Positions 2,362-59,308 of a stretch of 64,000 bases of DNA are shown piece after piece. Position 1 is the first letter of the stretch; each line of letters starts with the position of its first letter. Where the stretch lies: the IMG/VR virus record IMGVR_UViG_3300049218_000295, positions 1 to 64,000 of that record. One strand, written 5' to 3'. This DNA comes from a virus. Below the pieces are notes generated by a model. It was not told where the DNA came from. It saw only the letters and a program-made list of their open reading frames with translations, and searched no databases. A program made the translations under genes and the position numbers.

Positions 2362-2946
2362 ATGATTTCAAGAAATACTCTCATAGGGTTTCACGGCCAG
2401 CAAGGTTCGGGCAAGTCCAAACTCACTACTTTCACAGCCTCACTTTTAGAGCAACAAGGGTATTCTGTAGGGCTTTATGGCATCAAAAGCACCTTTAGTT
2501 GTTACGCCGAGAAGATTGCCTCGGACCTAGGGATGGAGTGGAAGGCAGGAGGAAAGGACCTTCTGGCTTTTAAAGAGTTACAGAAAGCAATTTCGTGCTC
2601 CATTGAACTGCATTATAAGAAAAGCGCCTGGTCAGATTTATTCCGTGATCAAGTGCTGCAACAGCCTGAGACCCAGACCCTCATCGCCGACGACATGAGG
2701 ACACCAATGAATTTTGATGCCTTGGTCCAGATTTCAGAGCACCGGCCCGTGGTCCTTTTCCGATTGCTAGCCTCAGAAGAGATTCGTCGGAAGCGATGCT
2801 CGGCTTTCCGGGAAAATGCTGGCTACACTGAAGAACTACTTGAAAAGCCATCGAGCTTACCCACAAACTTCAACTGGTGGGATATTAACACTGAACTTCC
2901 GATTGAAGAAAGCTACGCGGCGATTAAGGCAGCTTTAGGAGTATGA
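2362..2946 (+). CDS. Deoxynucleoside monophosphate kinase-like P-loop protein
   Basis: 194 residues from the ATG at 2362. A longer frame from the TTG at 2311 would begin inside the -35 box, so it is rejected. The N-terminus has a Walker A loop (GQQGSGKS, about residues 9-16), followed by a DDMRTP segment that resembles the acceptor-nucleotide region of phage dNMP kinases (T4 gp1 family), and a late basic stretch (RRKR) typical of the lid. It would convert dNMPs to dNDPs for DNA synthesis. In this genome it is also a candidate for phosphorylating an unusual purine dNMP made by the PurZ/PurB pair; that is inference. AAGGAA lies 12 bases upstream of the start. It overlaps the next kinase gene by 4 bases. 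Confidence 0.75.
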   Translation: MISRNTLIGFHGQQGSGKSKLTTFTASLLEQQGYSVGLYGIKSTFSCYAEKIASDLGMEWKAGGKDLLAFKELQKAISCSIELHYKKSAWSDLFRDQVLQQPETQTLIADDMRTPMNFDALVQISEHRPVVLFRLLASEEIRRKRCSAFRENAGYTEELLEKPSSLPTNFNWWDINTELPIEESYAAIKAALGV

Positions 2947-3374
2947 AAGAGCTGGTTATACTTGTAGGACCCCCCGGTTCCGGAAAAACAACCTATTCTA
3001 AGGCATTTCTACCTAATCACCTGCATCTTAGCACCGATTATGGAGCCATCAAGCAAAAATTCAAAGATGGTCTAGCAACGGGAAAAGACATTGTTATCGA
3101 TAGAATGAACCCAACCAAAAAGCAACGTGCAGAGTATATTAAGCCTGCAATAGAGGCGGGCTACCATGTCCGCGCCGTGATGTTCAATACACCTAAACTA
3201 GAATGTCGGCGTCGCCTAGTTCTCAGGAAGGACCACCCAACTCTCGATAACAGAAGTATCCCACGCTTGCACATGGTATTAGCGTATTTCTACAAAGAGT
3301 TTGAAGAGGTTGATGAAATTCCTGTCACCTTCGTCGAACCAGAAAATCTTTCCACGGACCCAGACGCTCCATAG
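2943..3374 (+). CDS. Polynucleotide kinase-like P-loop protein
   Basis: 143 residues. The N-terminus has a clear Walker A (GPPGSGKTT, residues 9-17), then an STDY segment, then IVIDRMNPT followed by RAEYI, the pattern seen in the kinase domain of T4 Pnk and other AAA_33 proteins (VDNTN..R..Y). It would phosphorylate a 5'-OH end or another small acceptor. There is no phosphatase domain, so it is shorter than T4 PseT/Pnk (about 300). It starts in a 4-base overlap with the dNMP kinase and its last 50 bases overlap the convergent purB gene. Confidence 0.78.
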   Translation: MKELVILVGPPGSGKTTYSKAFLPNHLHLSTDYGAIKQKFKDGLATGKDIVIDRMNPTKKQRAEYIKPAIEAGYHVRAVMFNTPKLECRRRLVLRKDHPTLDNRSIPRLHMVLAYFYKEFEEVDEIPVTFVEPENLSTDPDAP

Positions 3375-4545
3375 TAGAATTAAAATCCGTCGGCGGGTTC
3401 TGTTTGAGTTCCCAGTAAGGGTCGGCATGACCCTCACGTTCTTGCAGGTAGTACCTAAGTATCTCGGTGAGACACTCAGGGTTCTCGCGTAATTCTCCAA
3501 CCGCTCTTTCATGCGAATAAATTGTCTTGGACATCCCACGAGTTAACGACTTCAACCCATGATAAAGGTAAACCCACCCTTCCAGCATTTGCCTGTTGAT
3601 AATAGAGTTAGAAAGGTCCCTCAAGCCACGAGTGTCGGAGTTAGCCTCAAACGCGGTGAGCAGTGTTTTCTCCGCAATGGTGAAGGCCCCTTCTGCATTT
3701 TCGAAATCGATTGGGTTCACTTTATGAGGCATAGCTGAAGAACCAGCCTGTCCCGAGCTGGATTCGTATAGGAGCAATTTTCTTTGGCAGTGGTCCCATA
3801 GAGCACGTGCCAGTGCTCGCATCTTGACCGCAGTGGCCACCCCGGAAAGGAGTGTGGCTTCATTGCTCGGTCCAAGTTGCAACAGGCCATGTGTATCCGT
3901 TGGAGTTACAATCTGGACTCGTTCTAGCTGAGCGAGACGATAGGCGACCTTCTTTGACCAAGCCGTCGCCATGTCTTTGAAATCCGAAAGGCCGGAAATC
4001 AGCCTCAGCGCCGTCAGTTGACCATTAGAGCCCCCAAGTCGGTACTCGGGCAAGACTAGACCAATACGCCTGCATTTGGCACGTAGATAGGGGCCGATAA
4101 ACACTGGAGTCGCTGGCTGGCCATGGGTGTGAGCCAAAATGGCAACTGGAAGCTGCTTTTCATATTCGCGAATAGCTAGCTCCACTTCGCGGAGTAAATC
4201 ATTGATCATTAAGATGCAGAGGTGCACTTGCGTCCAACGAGCGTTGTGCATGATGTCCTCGGACGTCAGGCCGTAATGAAAAGAAACCTCCGGATAGTCT
4301 TCTTCTAGCACCTGGATCAGCGCAACCATTTGGTGCTTGGTGACCTGCTCTTTAACCGAAACTCGCTTAGCCAGAAGTTGGCGGTCCGGGTACATGGGCA
4401 AATGTAAGTCATTATTCAACACTTCTGCATAAGTCAAAGACCAGAGGGACATGAAGTATACAAAGTTTTCTTCCCCGACAATTGGAGAAAGCGCCGACAG
4501 CGAAGCTGCGTACCGACCATCGAGAACGGAAAAACTCACTGTCAC
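3325..4545 (-). CDS. purB: Adenylosuccinate lyase (PurB family)
   Basis: 406 residues, GTG start at 4543-4545 with CAGG just upstream. It belongs to the fumarase/aspartase superfamily: HTHGQPATP at residues 139-147 contains the catalytic-type His, and the signature loop GSSAMPHKVNP lies at about residues 268-278. The closest family pattern is bacterial PurB (LDGRYA.....LSPIVGE at the start). Cellular PurB removes fumarate from adenylosuccinate and SAICAR. In Z-genome phages the same reaction turns 2-aminoadenylosuccinate into dZMP, normally using the host enzyme. Here the phage carries its own copy and also a PurZ-like synthetase at 52398-53528. The protein is a little shorter than E. coli PurB (456). 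Confidence 0.93.
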   Translation of the reverse strand: MTVSFSVLDGRYAASLSALSPIVGEENFVYFMSLWSLTYAEVLNNDLHLPMYPDRQLLAKRVSVKEQVTKHQMVALIQVLEEDYPEVSFHYGLTSEDIMHNARWTQVHLCILMINDLLREVELAIREYEKQLPVAILAHTHGQPATPVFIGPYLRAKCRRIGLVLPEYRLGGSNGQLTALRLISGLSDFKDMATAWSKKVAYRLAQLERVQIVTPTDTHGLLQLGPSNEATLLSGVATAVKMRALARALWDHCQRKLLLYESSSGQAGSSAMPHKVNPIDFENAEGAFTIAEKTLLTAFEANSDTRGLRDLSNSIINRQMLEGWVYLYHGLKSLTRGMSKTIYSHERAVGELRENPECLTEILRYYLQEREGHADPYWELKQNPPTDFNSTMERLGPWKDFLVRRR

Positions 4546-4685: not shown

Positions 4686-5225
4686 TTACAGCTTCAGCAA
4701 TGACTGAACAGGGTGCTGCAACTTTTTGCGGCCTTCTAAGGCTTCAAGTTCAATGAAGAAACGGTGCCCCAAGACCTTTGCTCCGGCCCTCTCGCAGATT
4801 AGTTCTACGGCATGCGCCGTGCCACCGGTAGCCAAAACATCGTCGATAATGATTACCCGGTCCCCCTTGGCCAAAGAGGTGGCGTGGACTTCCAGACAGT
4901 CATCCCCGTATTCGAGGTTATAGGCTTGCTTCAAGACTTCCCGAGGCAGTTTTCCGGGCTTCCGGGCAACCACCAGACCCACATGTCGGATTGCGGCTAT
5001 CGCGGCTCCCAAAATGAACCCTCTGGACTCGATGGCCACCAGCTTGTTGAAGTCGACTTGCATTGATTTGTTGATTTGGTGAATCAGGGACTGGTATGCA
5101 ATCGGGGTCTCGAGAATTGGTGTGATATCCCGGAAAGTGATTCCAGGCTTCGGGAAATCGGGGACGCTAATCAAAAGAGACTCTAAGTAGGCCGGTTGCC
5201 AGTAATTTTGTTCGGGAAACGTCAT
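4686..5225 (-). CDS. apt: Adenine phosphoribosyltransferase
   Basis: 179 residues, the normal length of bacterial Apt. Landmarks are PGITFRDITP (about residues 27-36), VAIESRGFILGA (63-74), ARKPGKLP (87-94) and the PRPP-binding loop VIIIDDVLATGGT (124-136). It converts adenine and PRPP to AMP and pyrophosphate in the cytoplasm. A GGAGG ribosome site precedes its ATG. Its start codon overlaps, on the opposite strand, the start of the plus-strand gene at 5224. Apt is rare in phages. Next to purB and with a PurZ-like enzyme elsewhere in the genome, it may recycle adenine freed when adenine nucleotides are degraded; that link is inference. Confidence 0.95.
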   Translation of the reverse strand: MTFPEQNYWQPAYLESLLISVPDFPKPGITFRDITPILETPIAYQSLIHQINKSMQVDFNKLVAIESRGFILGAAIAAIRHVGLVVARKPGKLPREVLKQAYNLEYGDDCLEVHATSLAKGDRVIIIDDVLATGGTAHAVELICERAGAKVLGHRFFIELEALEGRKKLQHPVQSLLKL

Positions 5226-7586: not shown

Positions 7587-8192
7587 TTACACCACCCGCG
7601 ATGCTGTTTTTACTAACTGGAAAGCCGCATCGGGGCTCATGTGGAGCTTGTGATGCCAGAACTCTAGAACATTTGGGGTCGCAGCCAGAAGAATTTTGGT
7701 AGCGGTGTCTCCATGCTTCAAAAAGTCTCTGGCTTGCTCAAAGCGACGGTTTTCAGAAGACTCGGCAATACCGTGAACTACCACAATATCGTTGCAGCTT
7801 GAGTCTTCCCGAAGGTAGTCCCAAGCAGGGGAGCCCAGATCAATCCATTTAATCCGTGGAAGTTGTTTTTGCGCCTCAATTGCAAGATAGTAATTACGAC
7901 AGAGAAGCACCGCGAGATCGTAACAAGGCTCATCAGTAGGAAATGAACCAATTGCCATAGTTCCACCTGAACCAAGACCCGCAATGTTCTCAAACATTTG
8001 AGTGTAATAAGACAACTGGCTTTCTCCATGGAGAATTGTTACATGGTCGCCAATTTTGCAAGCCGTTTGAGTGAAACCAAAAGTTGGTGTCTTTTTCTTT
8101 TTTAATGAGCGTATGGGAACGCCGGAGAGGGCGAGAATCCTATCCGTCAAGCTCAGCCTATAATAATCCGAATCTGCTTTGGGGTGTGCCAC
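7587..8192 (-). CDS. Unknown replication-operon protein
   Basis: 201 residues, function not recognised. There is a basic stretch (residues 28-36, KKKKT) and an alpha/beta region with hydrophobic strands such as DIVVVHGI and KILLAATPN, like the core of a P-loop ATPase, but no Walker A loop is present. It lies between the UvsW-like helicase (6-base gap) and the HAD/DnaB genes. A helicase-loader or accessory role is possible from position only. Confidence 0.7.
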   Translation of the reverse strand: MAHPKADSDYYRLSLTDRILALSGVPIRSLKKKKTPTFGFTQTACKIGDHVTILHGESQLSYYTQMFENIAGLGSGGTMAIGSFPTDEPCYDLAVLLCRNYYLAIEAQKQLPRIKWIDLGSPAWDYLREDSSCNDIVVVHGIAESSENRRFEQARDFLKHGDTATKILLAATPNVLEFWHHKLHMSPDAAFQLVKTASRVV

Positions 8193-42734: not shown

Positions 42735-45700
42735 ATGGGCAAGATTCAAGACAAAGATATTAAATCCGCAGCAGACCTTGCCCTCGAAGGTTTTCCAATA
42801 TCCGACCTCCCCAACGATGATAAGATCTACATCGCTTCACTAGGAAAGACTCTCGCCAACGCCATCACCAGCAACGACCTCCTCGGCCCAACCGGTCCTC
42901 AGGGTACTACAGGTGTTGCCGGAGCAACCGGTCTTGTGGGTAGTCAAGGGACAACAGGCATTCAGGGCGTTACGGGCGTAGCGGGCACCGCAGGCTCACA
43001 AGGTAGTACGGGACTTCGGGGAACCACAGGAGTTGCGGGAAACCAAGGCTCCACAGGCGTTGCCGGAGCAACTGGGGTTCAGGGCAACCAAGGCGTTACG
43101 GGTGTAGCGGGCGTTAATGGTGTAACTGGTGTTGCAGGTGTTAACGGGGCTACTGGTGCCCAAGGAACGACCGGACTGACTGGTACTCAGGGTGCGACTG
43201 GCGTAGCGGGTGTTAACGGTGTAACTGGTGTTGCTGGAATTAACGGGGCTACCGGTGTCCAAGGGACCCAGGGCGCGACGGGTATTGCGGGTGTTAACGG
43301 AGTTACTGGAATCGCAGGCGCGACAGGCGTACAGGGTGTTACCGGAATCCGGGGCTATACCGGCATCGAAGGCACCACTGGCGTTGCGGGAAATCAAGGT
43401 TTAACCGGAACCCAGGGTCTACAGGGTTTAACCGGAGTCTCCGGTTCTAACGGAGTCACTGGGGTGCAAGGCGCAACAGGCGTCGCGGGTGCAACCGGGC
43501 GCGACGGCCCAACAGGTTTTCAGGGAGTCACAGGCGTTCAGGGCTCGACCGGCGTTGCCGGAGCCACGGGATACCAGGGCGTAACAGGAATCCAAGGCCA
43601 AACAGGCGTTGCCGGTATGACCGGCGTTCAAGGTATCACTGGTCTTTTTTCGTCAGCAGGCTATACAACCCAAACTCCAACGGTTCAGAAGTTTCTCACT
43701 GCAACTTCGGGAACGTACACGACGCCATCCAACGTCGCCTATATTATCGTTGAAATGGTCGGTGGCGGTGGTGGGGGCGCACCAGGGGGGACTCAATCTG
43801 TAGCTGCAACTTCGGGGGGAACTACAACTTTTGGCACTTCGTTTTTAAGTGCTACTGGTGGTGGCGGTGGTGGTCAGCCTCCTGGAGGTTCGGGAGGAAC
43901 AGTTTCTATTGGCTCTGGGGCCATTATTCTTGCTCAACTAACCGGAGGCCAAGGTTCTGCTGGCTCTTCGGTGGCGTTTTCTGCAGGCGGCGGCGGAGCG
44001 GCCTCTCCTTTTGGCGGTGCGGGTGGTGGCGGTCAAAACAGTGGTGGTGGCTATTACGGGATTGCGAATACTGGTTCAGGTGCGGGTGGTGGTGGAGCAA
44101 CAGCCACAAATCCTTCCGGCGGTGGTGGTGGGGCTGGTGGATATTTAAAAGTTTTAGTGCCAACTCCAGCGACTTATTATTCATACGCTATTGGTGGCGG
44201 CGGCGCATCTGGCACTGGATCGACCTCTGGCGGAGCTGGTGGTTCGGGCGTAATCATTGTTACCGAGTATTACAACCAGACTGTCGCGTCGGGCATCACG
44301 GTTACAGCTTCGACTCCTCCAACTAAGACTATTTACCTGACTGCTGGCGCGACGGGCACTTACACAACTCCTAAGGGCGTACAGTATATCTCTGTTCGGA
44401 TGGTGGGCGGTGGTGGTGGCGGTGCGGGGTCATCAACAGTAGCTGCAAATGGCGGCAGCGGCGGAACAGGTGGAACTTCATCTTTTGGTACAAACCTTCT
44501 AACTGCAAACGGTGGTTCAGGTGGTGGCGGTGGAGGAGCAGGTGGTGGACCTGGCGGCAGCGCATCTTTGGGGACTGGACCCATTGGGATTGGCGTAACT
44601 GGTGGTAACGGCGACAGTGCGTCAACATCAATCAGTGGTTTTTCTCCTGAAAGCGGCGAGGGTGGATCATCCGCTTTGGGTGGTGGCGGTTCAGGCGGTG
44701 CAATCAATTTTGGGGTCGGGGGCTCAGGAAATCCCAATACCGGCGGTGGAGGCGGTGGAGCTGGAGGCGGAAACATTTCAGGCGGCTCTATCGCAGGAAG
44801 TGGAGGTGGCGCAGGTGGGTACATTGAAGCAATTATTTCAAACCCAAGCGCTACATATTCTTACACAGTAGGCGCAGCGGGCACTGCTGGCGCAGCGGGA
44901 ACCAGCGGTAGTGCTGGTGGAATTGGTGGCACCGGACTCATCGAAGTGACTGAGTACTATACGGCTTATGCGACCGGCGGCTTCTCTGCTGGCGGTGCAA
45001 ACGTCCCCACAGTTCAGAAATTCTTAACTGCTACTTCTGGGACCTACACGACACCATCCAACGTCATCTACATTGAGGTGGAGCTGGTGGGCGGTGGTGG
45101 CGGTGGCTCTGGCTCCGGCACAACTGCTGGAGCAGGCGGCACGGGCGGAAATGGTTCTGCTTCTACTTTTGGTACAAGCCTGTTATCTGCAGGCGGCGGA
45201 ACGGGCGGAACTTGGGCGGGCGCGGGTGGCGCAGGGTCTACATCGACAACAATAAACACCCCCGCTATACAAGTAACCGCCGTAGGCGGAGGATCGGGCA
45301 GCGGAGCCGGAAACTCAAGTTCCGTAGCCCAATCAACAACTCCCGGCGCAGGCGGAAGTTCTTTTTTTGGCGGCAACGGCGGCGGCGGCGACCAAGCAAC
45401 GGGTGTCGGACATAGCGCGGCCTCTAACTCTGGTTCAGGCGGCGGCGGCGCTTTAGGCGCTAACCAAGCAAGTGACTACCCTGGATCGGGTGGCGGCGCT
45501 GGTGCCTACGTGAAAGCCGTCATCACCAACCCTTTGTCGTCTTATTCATGGACGGTTGGTTCAGGCGGTGCGGCTGGGACTGCGGGCTCGGCAGGATATG
45601 CAGGCGGCGCGGGTGGCTCTGGTGCGATCATCGTCACTGAATACTATGCAAATGGAACCGTGGGCACAGCAACTAATGTTACTGGGGTTGTAGCTCAAAT

Positions 45701-46172
45701 AAACGGCGGAACTGGGACCACATCACAAGCCGGTGGCATACTAACAGGAACAATAACTACCCAATCGACCGCCGTCACGGCAACAAGTTATACAACCTTC
45801 AGCAACAGTCCTGGGTTCTCGTTCACACCTGTTGTTAGTGGTACATACAAAATTCGTTGCAACGCCACCGTGGATTGCTACAACTCAAGTTCTAGTGGTC
45901 CTACTGGCGTTGTTAGAGTGTACAACACAAGCGGTGGTGCAAGTTTGCTGGCGGAGTCTGCAGGCTGCATTGCAAATACCGGTTTCAGCGGAGCGTCGGC
46001 CTCTCAGCCGACAATACCTATTGAAAGCTGGTACACCCTTACTGCAGGCGTGGCCTACGTATTCGATGTCCAAGGCAAGGCGGTAACAGACATCTATGGA
46101 GGTAGCGGAACACAATTATATCTAAGTGGAGGCGACGCGCCACTCCATATGTTCGCAGAGCGCATCTTATAG
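42735..46172 (+). CDS. Collagen-like and glycine-rich tail fibre protein
   Basis: 1145 residues. A short N-terminal region (1-50) is followed by about 250 residues of Gly-X-Y repeats built from GVTGVAG, GATGVQG and similar. Then come three repeats of a glycine-rich module, each starting with a Thr-rich strand (ATSGTYTTPSNV or similar) and VEMVGGGGGG-type stretches. The last 150 residues are a beta-rich C1q/TNF-like region (SGTYKIRCNATVD and later VYNTSG). Such Gly-rich modules form polyglycine-II bundles in some phage adhesins (established for S16-type adhesins). Likely the host-binding fibre tip. It follows the collagen-like gene after 4 bases. Confidence 0.85.
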   Translation: MGKIQDKDIKSAADLALEGFPISDLPNDDKIYIASLGKTLANAITSNDLLGPTGPQGTTGVAGATGLVGSQGTTGIQGVTGVAGTAGSQGSTGLRGTTGVAGNQGSTGVAGATGVQGNQGVTGVAGVNGVTGVAGVNGATGAQGTTGLTGTQGATGVAGVNGVTGVAGINGATGVQGTQGATGIAGVNGVTGIAGATGVQGVTGIRGYTGIEGTTGVAGNQGLTGTQGLQGLTGVSGSNGVTGVQGATGVAGATGRDGPTGFQGVTGVQGSTGVAGATGYQGVTGIQGQTGVAGMTGVQGITGLFSSAGYTTQTPTVQKFLTATSGTYTTPSNVAYIIVEMVGGGGGGAPGGTQSVAATSGGTTTFGTSFLSATGGGGGGQPPGGSGGTVSIGSGAIILAQLTGGQGSAGSSVAFSAGGGGAASPFGGAGGGGQNSGGGYYGIANTGSGAGGGGATATNPSGGGGGAGGYLKVLVPTPATYYSYAIGGGGASGTGSTSGGAGGSGVIIVTEYYNQTVASGITVTASTPPTKTIYLTAGATGTYTTPKGVQYISVRMVGGGGGGAGSSTVAANGGSGGTGGTSSFGTNLLTANGGSGGGGGGAGGGPGGSASLGTGPIGIGVTGGNGDSASTSISGFSPESGEGGSSALGGGGSGGAINFGVGGSGNPNTGGGGGGAGGGNISGGSIAGSGGGAGGYIEAIISNPSATYSYTVGAAGTAGAAGTSGSAGGIGGTGLIEVTEYYTAYATGGFSAGGANVPTVQKFLTATSGTYTTPSNVIYIEVELVGGGGGGSGSGTTAGAGGTGGNGSASTFGTSLLSAGGGTGGTWAGAGGAGSTSTTINTPAIQVTAVGGGSGSGAGNSSSVAQSTTPGAGGSSFFGGNGGGGDQATGVGHSAASNSGSGGGGALGANQASDYPGSGGGAGAYVKAVITNPLSSYSWTVGSGGAAGTAGSAGYAGGAGGSGAIIVTEYYANGTVGTATNVTGVVAQINGGTGTTSQAGGILTGTITTQSTAVTATSYTTFSNSPGFSFTPVVSGTYKIRCNATVDCYNSSSSGPTGVVRVYNTSGGASLLAESAGCIANTGFSGASASQPTIPIESWYTLTAGVAYVFDVQGKAVTDIYGGSGTQLYLSGGDAPLHMFAERIL

Positions 46173-51429: not shown

Positions 51430-52155
51430 TCAAACTGTGGGTGGCGCGACGACCTCGGTCACCGTAAATGGGCACTTGCTCCGTTCGTGCTCGAGCAAAC
51501 AGGCCCGGATATTCTTGAACCAAGAACGGGTGTTGTTGTCGTAATAGTAGCCGCGAGTCTTAGCCTCATCCTTGGTGTTGAAGTCTACTCCGGCGTGGAC
51601 TTTAATCATCGGATGACGAGCAAGTTCGATTGCAGCTTTAATATCGTAATGCGAGGCAATGTAGATGGTAGCCATCGAATCAAAAAGACCACGGTGGGCA
51701 AAGTCCAAGGTGTACCGGTGGTCTGCCGCCAAATACTTTAAAGCTCGCATTTTCATCTGCTCGGGATAGGCAAAATCCACCTGGGTGTCCACCCAGGGAA
51801 TTTGAGGCAATTCTCCGACAAGCGCCGTGTACTTTTGCTCAATCATAGCCTTATCGAGCGCAATTCCACCGTGGACGATGACAGCTACCGAGTGCCGAAG
51901 AAGCAGGCCGAGCCGCCCCAAGGCTTGGCCAAGGGGCACTCCAAAGGTTTCAAGCATCTTATCGTCGATACCTGTAAGTTCCGTGATTTCGGGTTTGAGC
52001 GGTGGACAGTTGGGGTCCTGATCATAAATAAGTTCACTTAGGAATGTCACCGGCTTGCGCGTCTCGACATTCCAAAGCACCGCTCCGACTTCGGTAATGC
52101 GGTCCGTGTTCGGGTCAAGGCCCGAAGTTTCTAGGTCCAGCGCTGTAACAAACAT
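51430..52155 (-). CDS. DEDDh-type 3'-5' exonuclease (DnaQ-like)
   Basis: 241 residues. TALDLETSGLDP (Asp7, Glu9) is exo motif I, VHGGIALDKAMI is motif II in altered form (usual His-Asn replaced), and HRGLFDSMATIY is the motif III His...Asp. It would proofread or trim 3' ends; no polymerase domain is attached. The C-terminal 70 residues (HPMIKVHAGVDFNTKDEAK) match the small extra domain seen in related phage exonucleases. Confidence 0.87.
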   Translation of the reverse strand: MFVTALDLETSGLDPNTDRITEVGAVLWNVETRKPVTFLSELIYDQDPNCPPLKPEITELTGIDDKMLETFGVPLGQALGRLGLLLRHSVAVIVHGGIALDKAMIEQKYTALVGELPQIPWVDTQVDFAYPEQMKMRALKYLAADHRYTLDFAHRGLFDSMATIYIASHYDIKAAIELARHPMIKVHAGVDFNTKDEAKTRGYYYDNNTRSWFKNIRACLLEHERSKCPFTVTEVVAPPTV

Positions 52156-52385
52156 TAGATGGTGAAACCTTTGAAGCCGGTTTCATCATAATGAAAGTAT
52201 TCGGCCTCGTCAAATTCGTTCGGAGTAAGCGAGATGTTGGGTTGCGGCGGATAAAGCACCTGCAAAATGATATGCTTACCCTTCTCAACCACGGTATAGA
52301 GAGCCTCTTTATCACTCTTACAAATCAGAGTGTCGTCTTGGCTGATATTTTGAGCGGTTGCGGGCTTAGTGAAAGTTGCGGGCAT
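52155..52385 (-). CDS. Unknown 76-residue protein
   Basis: Not recognised. It is located between the PurZ-like gene (12-base gap) and the exonuclease gene (1-base overlap). Beta-rich, with KGKHIILQVLY in the middle and an acidic end. Conserved placement next to purZ in other phages would be informative. Confidence 0.62.
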   Translation of the reverse strand: MPATFTKPATAQNISQDDTLICKSDKEALYTVVEKGKHIILQVLYPPQPNISLTPNEFDEAEYFHYDETGFKGFTI

Positions 52386-52397
52386 AATGCTTCTCCT

Positions 52398-53528
52398 TTA
52401 TTCGAGCCAAATATAATCTTCGTGGTCCGGGCCAGAGCCAATCATCGCAACGGGCAGTTCGGTAACTTCTTGCATCTTGTCCACATATTGACGCACACTC
52501 TTGTGCAAGTTGCGGTATTCTTTAATGCCACCACGAACCTTATAGGAAGACCAATCAATGTACTGTGGAAAGTTAAGAACGAGCTTGGTGGCCCCGCAGA
52601 AATCCGCAGAATCTTTAAGTAATTTCCAGGATGGGGTAAAGACTCGGCGAATCTTTTTGGTCACAGTGGTGCGCTCGCGCTCGGCCAGAATTGCAATTTC
52701 ACTCTCTGGCATACCAGCCTCACGTCCAACTTGCTCCCAGGTCAGCTCTTTTTGGTCGTCAAGAACATCACCCGAGTAACCAATTTGTTTGCCGTCGGCG
52801 TCAAAATTGGAACCCACCCGGATTGGGAAACTACGGACATTGAGATAGACGTCTCCTACCATTTCAGGTAGGATGCCGAAGTCAGCATACGCCTGTTGAG
52901 GCGTGCAATCGCGGAAAGTGCAATGCGGATAGTGTGTTCCGTAGTTGACAGAGAGAGCAAAACCTTGGGAAACTTCGTGCAGAAAAGTATGCATACTTGC
53001 AAACTCGGCGCGGACCGCTCGCATGAACGCCATTGGCTTGATAGCCCGTTCTGGGTTAACTCTGCCCCAGGTTTTGAGTTCTTGTCCACGCATAGCTTTA
53101 TCCGTAAAGGCGGCCCCACTGCCCGACATCGTGGAAGAAATATGTAGAGTAGATTGCGAACCGGTTGGTGACTCGGCCTCGATGTGGCGGTCCTCGACTA
53201 CAATGGCGCGTTCATGAATTTCGAGATCTTCAACTCTATAGCCTGTTTCTTCCAGCTCCTTATGAAGCTGCTTCATCTGGAAACCAGAATTTGGACCTAC
53301 CCAAAGTGTTGGGCGTTTGCCCACCAGTTTGGGTAAGATGGCTCCCGTTGGGAGCGCTTTGGCTACAAATTTCACTTCGCCCTTGAGAGCGGTGTGTCCG
53401 GCGTTCGGGAAATTGCCCGATGAGAGATTAGGGATATCAAAAATGTCTGCCAGACGACAGGACACGGCTCCCTTGGCCGAGCTTCCCCAGGCTGAATCAA
53501 CAATAGTGTTAAACTTTCCTTTTTGCAT
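52398..53528 (-). CDS. purZ: PurZ-type 2-aminoadenylosuccinate synthetase
   Basis: 376 residues (PurA about 430). P-loop region VDSAWGSSAKG (10-20): where PurA has GDEGKG, the catalytic Asp is Ser16, the hallmark change in phage PurZ. NFPNAGHT (39-46) keeps the His. PHCTFRDCTP (201-210), ELTWEQ (261-266) and TTVTKKIRRVF (287-297) agree with vibriophage PhiVC8 PurZ as I recall it, not with PurA. PurZ joins dGMP and Asp, using ATP/dATP or GTP, to give the precursor of dZMP, which PurB then completes. The phage's own purB is at 3325-4545. The start ATG overlaps the upstream gene by 20 bases. Confidence 0.9.
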   Translation of the reverse strand: MQKGKFNTIVDSAWGSSAKGAVSCRLADIFDIPNLSSGNFPNAGHTALKGEVKFVAKALPTGAILPKLVGKRPTLWVGPNSGFQMKQLHKELEETGYRVEDLEIHERAIVVEDRHIEAESPTGSQSTLHISSTMSGSGAAFTDKAMRGQELKTWGRVNPERAIKPMAFMRAVRAEFASMHTFLHEVSQGFALSVNYGTHYPHCTFRDCTPQQAYADFGILPEMVGDVYLNVRSFPIRVGSNFDADGKQIGYSGDVLDDQKELTWEQVGREAGMPESEIAILAERERTTVTKKIRRVFTPSWKLLKDSADFCGATKLVLNFPQYIDWSSYKVRGGIKEYRNLHKSVRQYVDKMQEVTELPVAMIGSGPDHEDYIWLE

Positions 53529-53982
53529 TTTGGCTCCTAGGTCCTTTTTTAGGGTGTTGTGACTTTGCGCGAATAAGTTCTTCTTCCAAGGCGCGAAAAG
53601 AGTAGGATTCGAAACTGCGTGATATTGGAAGCTTTTTCTCTCCTACAGTACCGCCCGCTAGAGACGCATCCCAAGCTCGACGTAAGTCGCCAAGCGTGAA
53701 AAGCGTCGGCTCATGGTCTGGCGAATTTTCTGCCGGGGTTCTACCATGATTAAATGCGTCCATCATCTGCTCTTTTAGTTTCCTGGAATACCTCTTGTGG
53801 AGTTCTGGAAATCTTTTGCGGACACGCATAATAAGTTCATGCACCCGCTCTTCGGTGGAAGTCGCGGGCGGAACAAACCCATCAGTAAGACTGTCCATTT
53901 CGTCAAGGAGCATCCACATCCAGCGGATTAGAATATGCTCGCGGTCGGTCTTGGCGGCAAATTCACTTTTCCGTAACTTCAA
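53509..53982 (-). CDS. Unknown 157-residue protein
   Basis: Helical, strongly charged protein with a basic C-terminus (PKKGPRSQNAKRKV). No HD, MazG or other nucleotide-metabolism motif that I can see, although it lies immediately upstream of purZ (20-base overlap). It overlaps the small heat-shock gene by 20 bases. Confidence 0.65.
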   Translation of the reverse strand: MKLRKSEFAAKTDREHILIRWMWMLLDEMDSLTDGFVPPATSTEERVHELIMRVRKRFPELHKRYSRKLKEQMMDAFNHGRTPAENSPDHEPTLFTLGDLRRAWDASLAGGTVGEKKLPISRSFESYSFRALEEELIRAKSQHPKKGPRSQNAKRKV

Positions 53983-54427
53983 TCTTCACCCCCGTGGGCA
54001 CGATTCCTGTCTTTTGGATTTTCAGAGTCAAAACGCCGCGCCGAAGTGTTGCCAGACACATTTTGGCATCAATCTGTTGTGGTAGCTCGTAGTCGTGCTT
54101 TTCCTTGGTTGCAGCCTTAGATACTGCGATCCGAACTTTATTTGCAAACACACGGACTTCGAGGTCTGTTGGAGCAATCCCAGGAACTGGGATTTCCAGC
54201 ACATAATGCTCAGTCTCAGTTTTCAGCGTCCCGGTCCAATTCTTGCTGGACTTGTCTCCGGTATTCCAATTGATAGTGGAAGTTGACGACTTAAAAATTG
54301 GGTCGAACCCCTCAAAAATTTGCGCCGCGCCTTCAGCCAATTCTTCGGTGCCTTTGGCCAAATCTTCTCCCATTTTGCGGAAATCCTCGCCCATTTTGCG
54401 GAAATCCTTAAACATGTCCTTCATCAA
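53963..54427 (-). CDS. Small heat-shock protein (Hsp20/alpha-crystallin)
   Basis: 154 residues. Residues 1-45 are charged and amphipathic (a repeated FRKMGED element). Residues 60-145 are an alpha-crystallin domain: YVLEIPVPGIAPTDLEVRV...KVRIAVSK near the start and ATLRRGVLTLKIQK as the conserved end, followed by the IEVTEK tail. It may protect or help fold phage proteins. Hsp20 genes are known in some large phages. Coupled by overlaps on both sides in the purZ-nrdAB block. Confidence 0.82.
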   Translation of the reverse strand: MMKDMFKDFRKMGEDFRKMGEDLAKGTEELAEGAAQIFEGFDPIFKSSTSTINWNTGDKSSKNWTGTLKTETEHYVLEIPVPGIAPTDLEVRVFANKVRIAVSKAATKEKHDYELPQQIDAKMCLATLRRGVLTLKIQKTGIVPTGVKIEVTEK

Positions 54428-54773
54428 GTGGTCCCTTCATACTTAGTGCATAAAGCACTGTCTTACAAACTTTTCTATTGCCTTCGTCAATCCATTGGGT
54501 ATCACCATGCTGCTGGACCGCCGAAGTGCCGACCGAATAAATCGCGAACTGTTCTCTGCCAATCAGGATATCCTTATTCTTGGGTTCATTGGGACCCAGA
54601 GCAGCTAAGGATTCACGTAGTTCTGCTTCTTTGCTGGTAAATTCGACTTCGGTTCCCACCGAACGAATCCACCGACTGAACCACTTTTGAGCCTCTTCAG
54701 GCTCTGCAATTTCGCACAATTCTTTAATGCACTGTTGCAGGATTTGTTCGGGCGTTTTCCGTTCACTAGACAT
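54408..54773 (-). CDS. Unknown 121-residue protein
   Basis: Not recognised. Helical N-terminus (RKTPEQILQQCIKELCEIA) and a more beta-like C-terminus. Located between nrdA (22-base gap) and the Hsp20 gene (20-base overlap). Confidence 0.65.
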   Translation of the reverse strand: MSSERKTPEQILQQCIKELCEIAEPEEAQKWFSRWIRSVGTEVEFTSKEAELRESLAALGPNEPKNKDILIGREQFAIYSVGTSAVQQHGDTQWIDEGNRKVCKTVLYALSMKGPLDEGHV

Positions 54774-54795: not shown

Positions 54796-56490
54796 TCATC
54801 CGTGGCAGGCAGCGCATTCTTCCTTTGAACGGGAAGCCAAGTCGCCCTTCAAAACCCCTTCAGTACGGAGATAGTAGAGCGTTTTCAAACCGGCCTCCCA
54901 GGCTGCAATATGAACCTCGTGAATGTACTTGGCGCTAGAATTGCTAGCGAAAAAGAGGTTCAAGCTCTGAGCTTGGTCGATGTGTTTCTGACGCTGAGCC
55001 GCTTGCTTTACCAAGGCATGCTGATTGATTTCGCGAGCGGTCAGAAATACCTCGCGTTCCTGGTCCGTAAGAAAAGCCAAATGCTGCACTGAACCCGATT
55101 GCGCATTAATGGTTTTCCAGACTTCGGTCGTGTTCTTGCCGTAGGCTTCAAGAACTTCAAGTAGTTTGGGGTTCTTACGGATGAAAGTACCTTTGGCCGA
55201 CTTCTGAGAGAAAACGTTGGCCGGGAGCGGCTCAATTCCTGCACTGTGACCACCGGAAATGGTGGAATTGGATACAGTCGGAGCCACAGCAAGCAAGTGT
55301 GTATTGCGACGACCAAAGCCCTTACACCACTCGGGTTCGCCCATCTCTTTTGCCAATTCTGCTGTTGCCTTTTCAGCTTTGTCGCGCATCGTTTTGAAAA
55401 CAAGATTGTTGAGCATCATGGCATCAAAGGAGTCAAAAGGCATCATATTGTTTTGGAGAAGAGTGTGCCAGCCGAGAACACCAATTCCAATGGCCCGACC
55501 CTTGACCGCAGAGCGCAGGCTGTTTTCAAGGCCCGGTTTGCCTTTAGCTTTCAAGATGTACTCGTCAAGAACAGCATCGAGAAAACGAACTGCGGTCTCG
55601 ACCAAGTCTGTATCTCTCCATTCGTTCCAACGAACAAGGTTGAGCGAGGAAAGACAACAAACGAATGAATGCTGGCCGTCCGTATAAAGAGTGATTTCGG
55701 TGCAAATATTGCTGGTGCGGACGCGGAGGTCGTGTTTGGCATAGCAGTCAGGGTTGGCTCGGTTCACATTGTCCGAGAAAAAGAGATAGGGCTCCCCAGT
55801 AGTCACCCTAGCGTCAAGAACATCTAACCAAATTTTCCTTTTGCTAGAATCTCCATCCAACATCTCCTTCATCCATTTATCGCTAATGCACACTCCGTGG
55901 TTGGTATTCAAACAGCGCCGATTCATGTCGCCCGTCGGGCGGCGAATGTTAATGAATTCGTCAATATCTAGATGGTCAATATCTAAATAGAGTGCCGAGG
56001 CCGCGCCTCGAGTTTTTCCTTGTTTCACCGAGTGGGTAGTGGAATCGTAAACTTTTGCCCAGGGAATCACGCCTTCGGACTCGCCATTACCCGCAACTTG
56101 CTTACCGCGACCACGAATATCACCTAGATAGACACCAACGCCCGCGCCATTCTTAGAAAGCATAGCGAGTTCGTGATTCTTCTGAAAGATGCTGTCAATA
56201 CTATCCTCAACGTGAATCGAATTGCAGGAAATGGGCAAGCCGCGAGAGGTTCCCATGTTGGAAAGGATGGGCGAGGCCGGACACAGCCAATTTTTCCACA
56301 TGGCATCGAAGTACTTCTTTTCCCAAACTTTCGGTTCTTTGGAATAACTCGCAGCAGCTTTAGCCACGCGTTTGTACATGCCACGGGGAGTCTCGCCATC
56401 AAGTAGGTAGCCACCCTGTAAGGTCGCTAGTCCTGGTTCGTCAAGCCACACGGGGGCCTCATTGGCCTGCTTCAATTCATCAAGTATCAT
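54796..56490 (-). CDS. nrdA: Ribonucleotide reductase class I, large subunit
   Basis: 564 residues, shorter than E. coli NrdA (761) because the N-terminal ATP-cone is missing, so dATP inhibition through that domain is unlikely. Landmarks: PASPILSNMGTSRGLPISC (substrate-site Cys), KNGAGVGVYLG, SNICTEI (active-site Cys/Glu loop), and a C-terminal CAAC pair for reduction. It reduces NDPs to dNDPs. A missing ATP-cone fits a phage that needs high dNTP levels and perhaps an altered purine pool. Coupled to nrdB 15 bases upstream. Confidence 0.94.
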   Translation of the reverse strand: MILDELKQANEAPVWLDEPGLATLQGGYLLDGETPRGMYKRVAKAAASYSKEPKVWEKKYFDAMWKNWLCPASPILSNMGTSRGLPISCNSIHVEDSIDSIFQKNHELAMLSKNGAGVGVYLGDIRGRGKQVAGNGESEGVIPWAKVYDSTTHSVKQGKTRGAASALYLDIDHLDIDEFINIRRPTGDMNRRCLNTNHGVCISDKWMKEMLDGDSSKRKIWLDVLDARVTTGEPYLFFSDNVNRANPDCYAKHDLRVRTSNICTEITLYTDGQHSFVCCLSSLNLVRWNEWRDTDLVETAVRFLDAVLDEYILKAKGKPGLENSLRSAVKGRAIGIGVLGWHTLLQNNMMPFDSFDAMMLNNLVFKTMRDKAEKATAELAKEMGEPEWCKGFGRRNTHLLAVAPTVSNSTISGGHSAGIEPLPANVFSQKSAKGTFIRKNPKLLEVLEAYGKNTTEVWKTINAQSGSVQHLAFLTDQEREVFLTAREINQHALVKQAAQRQKHIDQAQSLNLFFASNSSAKYIHEVHIAAWEAGLKTLYYLRTEGVLKGDLASRSKEECAACHG

Positions 56491-56505: not shown

Positions 56506-57468
56506 CTACGCATTAAAAACCTCCAGCCAATTTTTGGTTCCTTTGGCATAATCACTGACGCGGCTCGCGAAAAAATCACTGTGCGAGACGCCGCCCGAGA
56601 GCACATCAAACCAGTCCATGTTAAGGAGTAACGCCTTATCAATATTGGTCCACTTCGATTTCAGACCCAGGTCGTGCAGCTTCGTGTTGCAGCGGAAGCG
56701 GATGAAAGCCTTGAGGTCCTTAACCGACAGTCCTTCCACCGGGCCGAGTTCGAATGCTTTGTCGATGAAAGCGTCTTCGAGGGCGATAGTGAGCTTGGCA
56801 GCGTCGTAAATTTCACCTTTTAGCTCGTCGGTCCACACTTCTGGATATTCCGCGATAAACTGCTTAAATAACCGACAACCTGCTTCCGAGTGGAGCGATT
56901 CGTCCTTGATACTGAACGCGATGATTTGCCCCAGGCTCTTCATTTTGTTAAAGCGCGAAAAGTTGAGTAAGACTGCAAAGGAAGAGAAGAGGTTCACGCC
57001 TTCATTGAAGGCGGAGAAGATGGCGATAGAGCGAGCGATTTCTTGTTTCGTTTTGCCTTTGGTTTCGATTAGCCTATCGATTTTGGCTTTGGCCGTCGGC
57101 TCGTGAAGGAACGCCGAAAAGTCCTCGAGACCGAGCGATTGATTGAGGTAGGCATAAGAAACTGCGTGTACGGACTCCATAGAGCCAAATGCCGCCGCCA
57201 TCATCTGAATTTCAGGCTTTTTGAACCATTTGGCCACCATCTGGGTCCAGTACTCTTGGATGAAGATTTCAGACTGCGTGAAACCCTTCAGGATGTTGCC
57301 AATAACGGAACGCTCAGCATCGGTGAGCTTGGTCTTCCAATCATTGATGTCATCCGACATCGCGATTTCAGTATGAAGCCAGTGCGACTGCTGCTGCTGC
57401 TCCCAGTAAGTGTAGGCCCAATCGTACTCAAAAGGGCTATAGGTAGCTCTAGGAGTTAATAACGGCAT
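56506..57468 (-). CDS. nrdB: Ribonucleotide reductase class I, small subunit
   Basis: 320 residues. Diiron ligands: Glu34, Glu98-x-x-His101, a Glu in FNEGVNLF and Glu-x-x-His in DESLHSE. The radical Tyr is Tyr105, four residues after His101, as in E. coli NrdB (Tyr122). So this is a classic tyrosyl-radical class Ia type enzyme. First gene of the nrdB-nrdA unit; a hairpin structure lies upstream at 57497-57541. Confidence 0.94.
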   Translation of the reverse strand: MPLLTPRATYSPFEYDWAYTYWEQQQQSHWLHTEIAMSDDINDWKTKLTDAERSVIGNILKGFTQSEIFIQEYWTQMVAKWFKKPEIQMMAAAFGSMESVHAVSYAYLNQSLGLEDFSAFLHEPTAKAKIDRLIETKGKTKQEIARSIAIFSAFNEGVNLFSSFAVLLNFSRFNKMKSLGQIIAFSIKDESLHSEAGCRLFKQFIAEYPEVWTDELKGEIYDAAKLTIALEDAFIDKAFELGPVEGLSVKDLKAFIRFRCNTKLHDLGLKSKWTNIDKALLLNMDWFDVLSGGVSHSDFFASRVSDYAKGTKNWLEVFNA

Positions 57469-57975: not shown

Positions 57976-58443
57976 CTACAGAAGTTTGGCTTTGACATCC
58001 TTGACTTCGTTGCCTGGGATTCGGATTTCATTTTCGGAATCACCAACTCCGGCACCGGAATATTCATGATAGAGCTTCAAAGTTTCAAGCCAATGCACTT
58101 TGCTCTTCGGGGCGTAACCGCGCAGCAAGGCCCAGGGTTTTGGTATACCATTGCCACCAGCAAAACCAATTGCCGATTCTTTTTCCCACGACCAAGACCA
58201 GCCGGGATTATCTAGGTCGACGTCTTTAATTTGTTTAACTCCAATAACGCGATAGACCGGTAATGGGTCCGGAAAGCCTTTAACCATATCCAGAAGGTCC
58301 TCGGCATCCGCTATTGCGGTATCTTTGTCTTCGAACATGCATTCGGCGTCCTCTTTCATCGGCTTGGAATAGCCCGGATAGAGGTCGTAGTAGGAATCTC
58401 GCCAGTTGTAGGTTTTGAGGATATCCGCGAGTTTGAGATTCAT
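57976..58443 (-). CDS. ADP-ribosyltransferase-like protein
   Basis: 155 residues. VYRVIG (Arg65) resembles the first ART motif; [15 protein letters not shown] (81-95) resembles the STS strand and following helix; SENEIRIPG (136-144) supplies an E-x-E (Glu137, Glu139). Together they fit the R-S-E class of mono-ADP-ribosyltransferases, such as T4 Alt/ModA and clostridial exoenzymes. It would transfer ADP-ribose from NAD+ to host proteins, but the resemblance is by motif only. No signal peptide. Coupled to the collagen-like gene by a 4-base overlap; if packaged with tail proteins it could be injected. Confidence 0.55.
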
Positions 58444-59075
58444 GCGTGCTGATAGATGGAAAGCACCCGGTCGCCTGCTGCTAATGCGGACGACCCACCA
58501 GTTGCAAGGTCATTGAGAAAAGTGACGCGAGTGGTACCCGCCAAGTTAGTGCTAATAGAGTAATCTTCGCCCAAGTACTGGATAAGACCATCAAAAACAA
58601 ACGAAAGTGTGTTTGGTGTTACGAGATAGGCCAAGTCAATATATTGGTTCGCAATATCTGCACTCTGCAAAATATACAGTTCTTGGTTTGGAGTGTTGCC
58701 GACAATCCCAATTCCAGTAACGCCCTGCATTCCTTGGGCACCGGTTAGACCGCCATAACCCGTCTCGCCTTGCATTCCAATGCCGGTAACACCCTGAGGC
58801 CCCTGAAGTCCAGTTACACCATCGAGTGCCACCGCTCCCGTCACACCTTGCAAGCCGGTAACACCCATTGGACCGATATATGCCGCATTGTTGCTATTAA
58901 AGGCAATGACACCAAGTCCACGATAGCGGTTGAAGTCATTGATGTTGGCCGTGATAATGGCTTGGTCGACTAGCACCCTTGAATCGGAGTTGATGCGGAG
59001 AGTAGCCTTGGTCGCTGAAAGTTGCAACACCAGCAGTCCATTGGTCAAATTGGTTACAATAACGTCTGATGCCAT
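58440..59075 (-). CDS. Short collagen-like tail protein
   Basis: 211 residues from ATG 59073-59075; a longer frame has no support. Residues 1-68 are a globular N-terminal region, about 70-130 are Gly-X-Y repeats (GVTGLQG, GMQGVTG), and the last 80 form a domain matching the end of the protein at 41030-42730 ([26 protein letters not shown]). Probably a second virion fibre or decoration protein with the same trimerisation module. Confidence 0.82.
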
Positions 59076-59154
59076 ATCCCCAAGATAAGCGTCGCCTTGG
59101 TATTTTTGTCGCGGGTGCGGGGAAATCGGTGGGCCTTTGTGTTGTGCGTCATGG

Positions 59155-59308
59155 GAACGGAAGCGGGTTCGGGGAGGGAAATACAACCCCCCAAACCCCC
59201 CTTACGCGTTCGCAGCATGTGCGAGATGGGTGTTTTGGGGTTCTGGTCTAGTCTCAATACTAGAACAGAAGCGGGTTCGGTACAGGCAGAACAACCTCCC
59301 AGGCCCAG
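59155..59308. repeat. Pair of GC-rich direct repeats in a 301-base gene-free gap
   Basis: GAACGGAAGCGGGTTCGG at 59155-59172 and GAACAGAAGCGGGTTCGG at 59263-59280 (one mismatch), each followed by a similar Pu-rich then C-rich stretch, so the units are about 45 bases long and 108 bases apart. They lie between divergent genes (59075 and 59377). No convincing coding frame is present in this gap. Confidence 0.6.

What the first reader, a model, noticed from the sequence alone, without database searches (positions are those of the whole stretch)
52398..53528. PurZ-type synthetase: the phage may build diaminopurine (Z) DNA
Seen: the PurA P-loop GDEGKG is replaced by GSSAKG (Ser16 in place of the catalytic Asp), and blocks RDCTP, ELTWEQ and TTVTKK.RRVF replace the PurA equivalents. 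Known: these are features of phage PurZ (PhiVC8, S-2L), which starts dZTP synthesis from dGMP. Inferred: adenine in the virion DNA is wholly or partly replaced by 2,6-diaminopurine.
Basis: partly seen in the sequence, partly recalled or inferred. Interest (0 to 1): 0.88.

Follow-up and report, generated by a model that had tools for sequence, protein, structure and literature searches.

The report
Large-phage enzyme for Z-base DNA
This 169-kb uncultured phage carries an intact PurZ gene, the enzyme that starts making the unusual DNA base Z (2,6-diaminopurine) from a G nucleotide; it belongs to an uncharted branch of PurZ found in very large phages and comes with its own PurB but without the polymerase and A-removing enzymes known from other Z phages.

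Summary
Window 52398-53528 (MINUS strand) encodes a 376-aa protein with GSSAKG (Ser16) in place of PurA's GDEGKG. The dGMP contacts of S-2L PurZ that are constant across PurZ are kept, as are the Asp-loop motif TTVTK and the S-2L ATP pocket (N319, F320, Q322). Trees place it inside PurZ, apart from PurZ0 and from bacterial and archaeal PurA, in a new clade (100/99) of uncultured phage contigs up to 436 kb; no INPHARED phage is closer than 36%. So 'PurZ' is right. 'Z in the virion DNA' is likely but unproven. The record (168,948 bases, no end repeats) has its own divergent PurB, an adenine phosphoribosyltransferase, and a ribonucleotide reductase in the same gene run as purZ. No DatZ, MazZ, DUF5664, DutZ or DpoZ, and no family A, B or C polymerase, was detected. 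One near relative has DUF5664 beside purZ; larger ones have RNR, ThyX, a dNMP kinase and PurB. Among recognisable isolates, phage PurB occurs only with PurZ. Best reading: a new variant of the Z-DNA kind, with partial or complete A-to-Z replacement. Mass spectrometry or an enzyme assay would decide.

The parts
52398..53528 (-). purZ: succino-2-amino-deoxyadenylate synthetase, 376 aa, Ser16 in GSSAKG
3325..4545 (-). purB-like adenylosuccinate lyase, 406 aa, divergent; catalytic blocks GLTSEDI, THGQPATP and AGSSAMPHKVNPIDFENAEG intact
   Evidence: PRK09285 2.9e-37, below equivalog cut-off; PDB adenylosuccinate lyases 5e-21; alignment with E. coli PurB
4686..5225 (-). apt: adenine phosphoribosyltransferase, 179 aa, next to purB
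   Evidence: (above an NCBIfam cut-off, 201 bits)
56506..57468 (-). ribonucleotide reductase beta subunit, first gene of the run that leads to purZ
54796..56490 (-). ribonucleotide reductase alpha subunit (PRK09102/NrdE-prime, over cut-offs)
54408..54773 (-). small gene of unknown function in the RNR-purZ run
   Evidence: no family
53963..54427 (-). HSP20-like small chaperone in the RNR-purZ run
   Evidence: PF00011 8.8e-8
53509..53982 (-). gene of unknown function whose 3' end overlaps the purZ start by 20 bases
52155..52385 (-). small ORF downstream of purZ
   Evidence: mechanical ORF only
51430..52155 (-). DnaQ-like 3'-5' exonuclease downstream of purZ; the same family sits near purZ in relatives L140, L148, L160
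   Evidence: (PF00929 3.6e-10)
2943..3374 (+). AAA_33 polynucleotide-kinase-like P-loop kinase next to purB; substrate unknown

Best explanation
The gene encodes a working PurZ. During infection it joins aspartate to dGMP, at the expense of ATP or dATP, giving N6-succino-2-amino-dAMP (dSMP). The phage's own PurB-like lyase (host PurB as back-up) removes fumarate to give dZMP; kinases raise it to dZTP, which replaces dATP at some or all A positions of the phage DNA. The phage RNR, in the same gene run, supplies the deoxynucleotides. Shown here: family, intact active site, genome context. Inferred from studied PurZ: substrates and product. Inferred: that PurB acts on dSMP, that dZTP reaches the virion DNA, and that replacement may be partial, since no dATP-removing enzyme or Z-preferring polymerase was found.
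For: Motifs and models. Substrate residues named in the S-2L paper (PMC8342488) map onto P0001: S16, N42, A43, H45, T46, S132, T133, R147, Q188, C203, T204, R237, V238, T287-T290, R294, and ATP pocket N319/F320/Q322 with G366-P367. Trees: inside PurZ (100/98 with archaeal PurA included), not PurA, not PurZ0. Described Z lineages (PurZ of PhiVC8/S-2L/SH-Ab and PurZ0 of Ghobes/Wayne) lie on both sides of it, so the shared activity is the simplest reading. Context: purB and apt in the same genome; RNR in the same run; in nearest relative L123 (66% identical PurZ, otherwise a distant phage) RNR again directly precedes purZ. In relative L124 purZ is followed by a PF18909 dATP/dGTP diphosphohydrolase, a known Z companion. 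In the 427-kb relative, class II RNR, ThyX and a dNMP kinase lie within 10 kb of purZ. PurB occurs in 10 of the 25 clade records of 150 kb or more, and in recognisable isolate phages only in PurZ carriers.
Against: No DatZ, MazZ, DUF5664, DutZ or DpoZ homologue found, and no DNA polymerase of family A, B or C; the record may be incomplete (no end repeats). The clade lacks any tested member. PurZ HMM score is below NCBI's cut-off. PurB is far below its equivalog cut-off and could have drifted in substrate. The fold model does not separate PurZ from archaeal PurA.
Confidence: 0.75

Rival explanations
1. PurZ is active but the phage DNA carries only a minor fraction of Z, because dATP is not removed and an unselective (host) polymerase copies the genome; Z is a partial mark against restriction enzymes rather than a replacement. 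(This is a sub-case of the best explanation that differs in extent.)
For: No DatZ/DUF5664/DutZ/DpoZ in the record. The phage encodes clamp-like, clamp-loader, primase, helicase, ligase and DnaQ-like parts but no detected polymerase, which suits use of the host polymerase. Expression of the S-2L triad in E. coli converted a significant part of chromosomal and plasmid A to Z (PMC8342488).
Against: The missing genes could be in an unsequenced part of the genome or be too divergent; the S-2L-type Q322 pocket suggests that PurZ itself may consume dATP (S-2L PurZ can act as a dATPase, PMC8342488).
Confidence: 0.45
2. A horizontally acquired PurA-like enzyme that, with PurB and Apt, boosts ordinary AMP/ATP supply for the phage (auxiliary purine metabolism), with no Z.
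For: PurB and Apt are purine enzymes of AMP synthesis and salvage.
Against: The catalytic Asp of PurA is Ser, the protein nests inside PurZ with 100/98 support and keeps the PurZ substrate pocket and the insertion after RVG.
Confidence: 0.1
3. The enzyme has drifted to another acceptor or product (for example GMP to a ribo-Z nucleotide, or a signal or antimetabolite), like the Ser-bearing plasmid proteins of Rhizobiaceae of unknown role.
For: Ser at this position occurs outside phages in proteins without a known link to Z DNA; the clade is untested.
Against: The constant residues around the deoxyribose and guanine are kept, and the gene lies in a dNTP gene run with RNR.
Confidence: 0.1

Closest known systems
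[quoted passage not shown]
   Same: Ser P-loop, dGMP pocket, Asp loop TTVTK, ATP pocket; 31-37% identity depending on alignment
   Different: Separate, well supported clade; phage genome about 4 times larger; own PurB and Apt; no DatZ, MazZ or DpoZ detected
PurZ0 of Gordonia phage Ghobes, Arthrobacter phage Wayne, Streptomyces phage Galactica
   Same: Ser P-loop; Ghobes and Galactica also encode a PurB-like lyase
   Different: P0001 falls in PurZ, not PurZ0; no dutZ/dmtZ/DpoZ-1 detected in this record
Flavobacterium phage MaF61 (isolate, 167,814 bp)
   Same: Large myovirus with a GSSGKG synthetase, PurB-like lyase and both RNR subunits
   Different: Its synthetase is a different, longer PurZ branch; it has a family B polymerase
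Uncultured phage contigs L123 (160.7 kb), L124 (41 kb), L125/L126 (436/427 kb)
   Same: Same PurZ clade, 66, 56 and 46-48% identical; RNR near purZ in many
   Different: L123 lacks purB; L124 has DUF5664 and PolA; several jumbo members have PolA, PurB and YfbR-like HD proteins

Membership tests
PurZ (succino-2-amino-deoxyadenylate synthetase) | Serine in place of PurA's catalytic Asp in the P-loop | tested here: met
   Ser16
PurZ (succino-2-amino-deoxyadenylate synthetase) | Conserved dGMP, aspartate-loop and ATP contacts of S-2L/PhiVC8 PurZ | tested here: met
   contacts that vary among PurZ differ here too (Y203 to H202, G130 to S131, G25 to A18)
PurZ (succino-2-amino-deoxyadenylate synthetase) | Places within the PurZ clade in a rooted tree with PurA, PurZ0 and archaeal PurA | tested here: met
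   (100/98)
PurZ (succino-2-amino-deoxyadenylate synthetase) | Reaches NCBIfam NF038379 cut-off (300 bits) | tested here: not met
   180 bits, still the best model; a curated threshold set on known members, not a biochemical criterion
PurZ (succino-2-amino-deoxyadenylate synthetase) | Makes dSMP from dGMP and aspartate | not testable with these tools
   needs an enzyme assay
PurA (adenylosuccinate synthetase) | Catalytic Asp in GDEGKG and placement among PurA | tested here: not met
PurZ0 | Placement with Ghobes/Wayne/Galactica proteins | tested here: not met
Z-DNA phage (full Z system) | dATP/dGTP hydrolases: DatZ, MazZ, DUF5664 or DutZ | tested here: not met
   none in the 168,948-base record; record may be partial
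Z-DNA phage (full Z system) | DpoZ-type family A polymerase | tested here: not met
   no PF00476 in the record; S-2L, a proven Z phage, has only a PrimPol (PMC8599892)
Z-DNA phage (full Z system) | dZ in virion DNA | not testable with these tools
   needs nucleoside mass spectrometry
PurB (adenylosuccinate lyase), window 3325-4545 | Fold family and catalytic signature blocks | tested here: met
   below equivalog cut-offs, so substrate unproven

The most novel reading that the evidence does not exclude
A third way to Z DNA in large phages: PurZ plus a phage PurB (and Apt salvage of free Z base, then RNR) feeds dZTP to the host replicase, and instead of a Z-selecting DpoZ or a dATPase the phage uses a stand-alone DnaQ-like exonuclease, encoded beside purZ, that removes weakly paired A more often than Z.
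Probability: 0.12. Interest if true: 0.85.

Novelty: new variant of a known kind. Interest (0 to 1): 0.64.

Why it matters
The PurZ isolates met here, MaF61 aside, have genomes of about 38 to 83 kb. A distinct PurZ clade in contigs up to 436 kb widens the known range of Z synthesis to large phages, ties it to phage-encoded PurB and RNR, and asks how A is kept out of the DNA when DatZ, MazZ and DpoZ are absent. The cultured phage MaF61 makes the large-phage question testable on the bench now.

Tried and rejected
Single-protein and over-divergent alignment scans of viral contigs failed; narrower alignments worked. Genome-contig scan with the clade alignment: no relative. PurB scan of viral contigs: no close match. 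123233-123541 looked by eye like a DUF550/MazZ, but Pfam does not support it; it is phrog_2831 of unknown function. 7587-8192 'DNA polymerase' PHROG hit: 201 aa, judged by eye not to be a polymerase. YfbR-like HD proteins of jumbo relatives were compared with DatZ and E. coli YfbR: not clearly DatZ. PurB hits in Acinetobacter MD-2021a and Microcystis MaAM05 records were set aside as bacterial-looking contigs. Foldseek confirms the adenylosuccinate-synthetase fold but ranks archaeal PurA and PurZ side by side, so it does not decide. Literature: no held paper on Z bases in jumbo or huge phages (open-access library only).

Full report
WHAT WAS CHECKED. The window is bases 1-64000 of a 168,948-base linear IMG/VR virus record. 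The ORF at 52398-53528 is on the minus strand and reads through without a break. PhiVC8 PurZ carries the last three almost unchanged. The best NCBIfam model is PurZ (4.7e-53, 180 bits, below the curated cut-off of 300), ahead of PRK04293 (141 bits) and bacterial purA (96 bits). PHROGs assigns 2-aminooxy adenylosuccinate synthetase.

ACTIVE SITE. The S-2L PurZ paper (PMC8342488) names the residues around dGMP, aspartate and dATP. Mapped by alignment, P0001 keeps the catalytic Ser, the constant guanine and phosphate contacts, the Val next to the 2' position, the Asp loop T287-T290, and the N-F-x-Q plus G-P adenine pocket of S-2L. The insertion after RVG that the paper calls PurZ-specific is also present. 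Ser16 by itself is weak evidence: plasmid proteins of Rhizobiaceae have it too, and a published survey finds Ser or Gly in four archaeal relatives (PMC12884076).

RELATIVES AND TREE. In INPHARED the highest identity is Alteromonas ZP6 at 36%. A scan of IMG/VR with a small clade alignment found 46 loci, among them contigs of 436, 427, 395, 393, 377, 371, 363 and 356 kb. All relatives whose P-loop was read have Ser. In trees with E. coli and other bacterial PurA, archaeal PurA (Pyrococcus, letters), PurZ0, plasmid proteins and small-phage PurZ, the large-phage group is one clade (100/99) inside PurZ (100/98), and P0001 pairs with L123 (98-99) and then L124 (100/100). L124 is only 41 kb long as a contig, so 'large' describes most of the clade, not every member. 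Because PurZ0 phages and PhiVC8-type phages are both described as Z phages (PMC12884076), and the P0001 clade lies between them on the tree, the same reaction is the simplest expectation.

GENOME CONTEXT. purZ lies in a same-strand run: RNR beta, RNR alpha, a small gene, an HSP20-like gene, an unknown gene whose end overlaps the purZ start by 20 bases, purZ, a small ORF and a DnaQ-like exonuclease. About 50 kb away are a purB-like gene and an apt gene side by side. The PurB-like protein is divergent but keeps the catalytic blocks of E. coli PurB. The virus also has phage terminase, portal, DnaB-like helicase, primase, NAD ligase, a clamp-like protein and a clamp loader subunit.

WHAT IS MISSING. 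Pairwise searches with DpoZ, DatZ, MazZ, DutZ, DmtZ and PrimPol of known Z phages hit nothing in the record; the only matches were to PurZ, PurB and generic primase and P-loop proteins. Family models for family A polymerase, YfbR-like HD (the DatZ family), DUF550 and DUF5664 find nothing in it, nor do family C and B polymerase models or local profiles. The record has no end repeats and may be partial, so absence is provisional. Nearest relative L123 also lacks family A polymerase, YfbR-like HD, DUF5664 and PurB but has a dUTPase-family protein and a dCTP-deaminase-like protein.

SUPPORT FROM THE CLADE. L123 shares little else with this record (12 of 218 ORF queries; terminase and portal about 125-130 bits) yet its PurZ is 66% identical and again directly follows RNR. 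L124 has a PF18909 dATP/dGTP diphosphohydrolase directly after purZ and a family A polymerase in the record; G002/G003 have PF18909 in the record. The 427-kb member has class II RNR, ThyX and a dNMP kinase around purZ. An RNR large-subunit-like ORF lies within 10 kb of purZ in 16 of the 46 loci. PurB family members occur in 10 of the 25 clade records of 150 kb or more (counted from the table). In INPHARED the recognisable isolate phages with PurB are the Gordonia (6 records) and Streptomyces (5 records) PurZ0 phages and MaF61, all of which carry a PurZ homologue; the rest are unannotated fragments or bacterial-looking contigs.

MECHANISM. dGMP plus Asp gives dSMP (PurZ; inferred from studied members), then dZMP (phage or host PurB; inferred), then dZTP (kinases; inferred), then DNA. 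Whether A is excluded is open. Three routes fit: partial replacement; PurZ using dATP as donor as S-2L PurZ can (PMC8342488), supported by Q322; or exclusion by proteins not recognised here. The DnaQ-like exonuclease near purZ in this record and in L140, L148 and L160 is a lead, not evidence: in PhiVC8 DpoZ removing exonuclease activity left the Z preference unchanged and backtracking was proposed instead (PMC8599892). Bacterial Apt enzymes accept 2,6-diaminopurine (own knowledge, not tested here), so Apt plus RNR could salvage free Z base.

VERDICT. A genuine PurZ in a large uncultured phage, member of an uncharted PurZ clade: new variant of a known kind. The claim of Z in the virion DNA is likely but rests on inference.

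Noticed in passing
L199, L200, L201 (plasmids of Agrobacterium rubi and Rhizobium): About 540-aa 'adenylosuccinate synthetases' with GSEGKG (Ser for Asp) and an extra part of about 150-200 aa, followed by an overlapping hypothetical gene: a bacterial plasmid-borne PurZ-like protein of unknown role.
   Followed up: partly
L017 (Flavobacterium phage MaF61) 8296-9639, 19980-21335: A cultured 168-kb myovirus carries a GSSGKG PurZ-like protein, a PurB-like lyase and RNR; the main text of the paper that describes the phage does not mention the synthetase.
   Followed up: partly
L143 8514-9212 and L153 8948-9622: A shared protein of no known family lies just upstream of purZ in two large-phage relatives; by eye it resembles a TIM-barrel aldolase.
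   Followed up: no
L024 13134-13457: DUF7768/DUF4406 (nucleoside-deoxyribosyltransferase-like by eye) gene 2 kb from purZ, possibly comparable to DmtZ.
   Followed up: no
record position 161285-162046 (L008 17285-18046, minus strand): Thg1-type tRNA-His guanylyltransferase (PF04446 1.4e-25) in the same phage.
   Followed up: no
record position 164001-164474 (L009 1-474): NT5C-type deoxynucleotidase (PF06941 5.5e-13), a possible further dNMP pool enzyme.
   Followed up: no
window 42735-46172 and 58440-59186: Collagen-like proteins with many G-x-TG repeats, probably tail or surface fibres.
   Followed up: no
record position 155273-156025 (L008, minus strand): Putative DNA methyltransferase (DPPY motif seen by eye), which could act on A or Z.
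   Followed up: no
MW495066 (L208): Record named Microcystis phage MaAM05 looks like bacterial chromosome around its purB gene (metG, proS, lepA, ftsH).
   Followed up: partly
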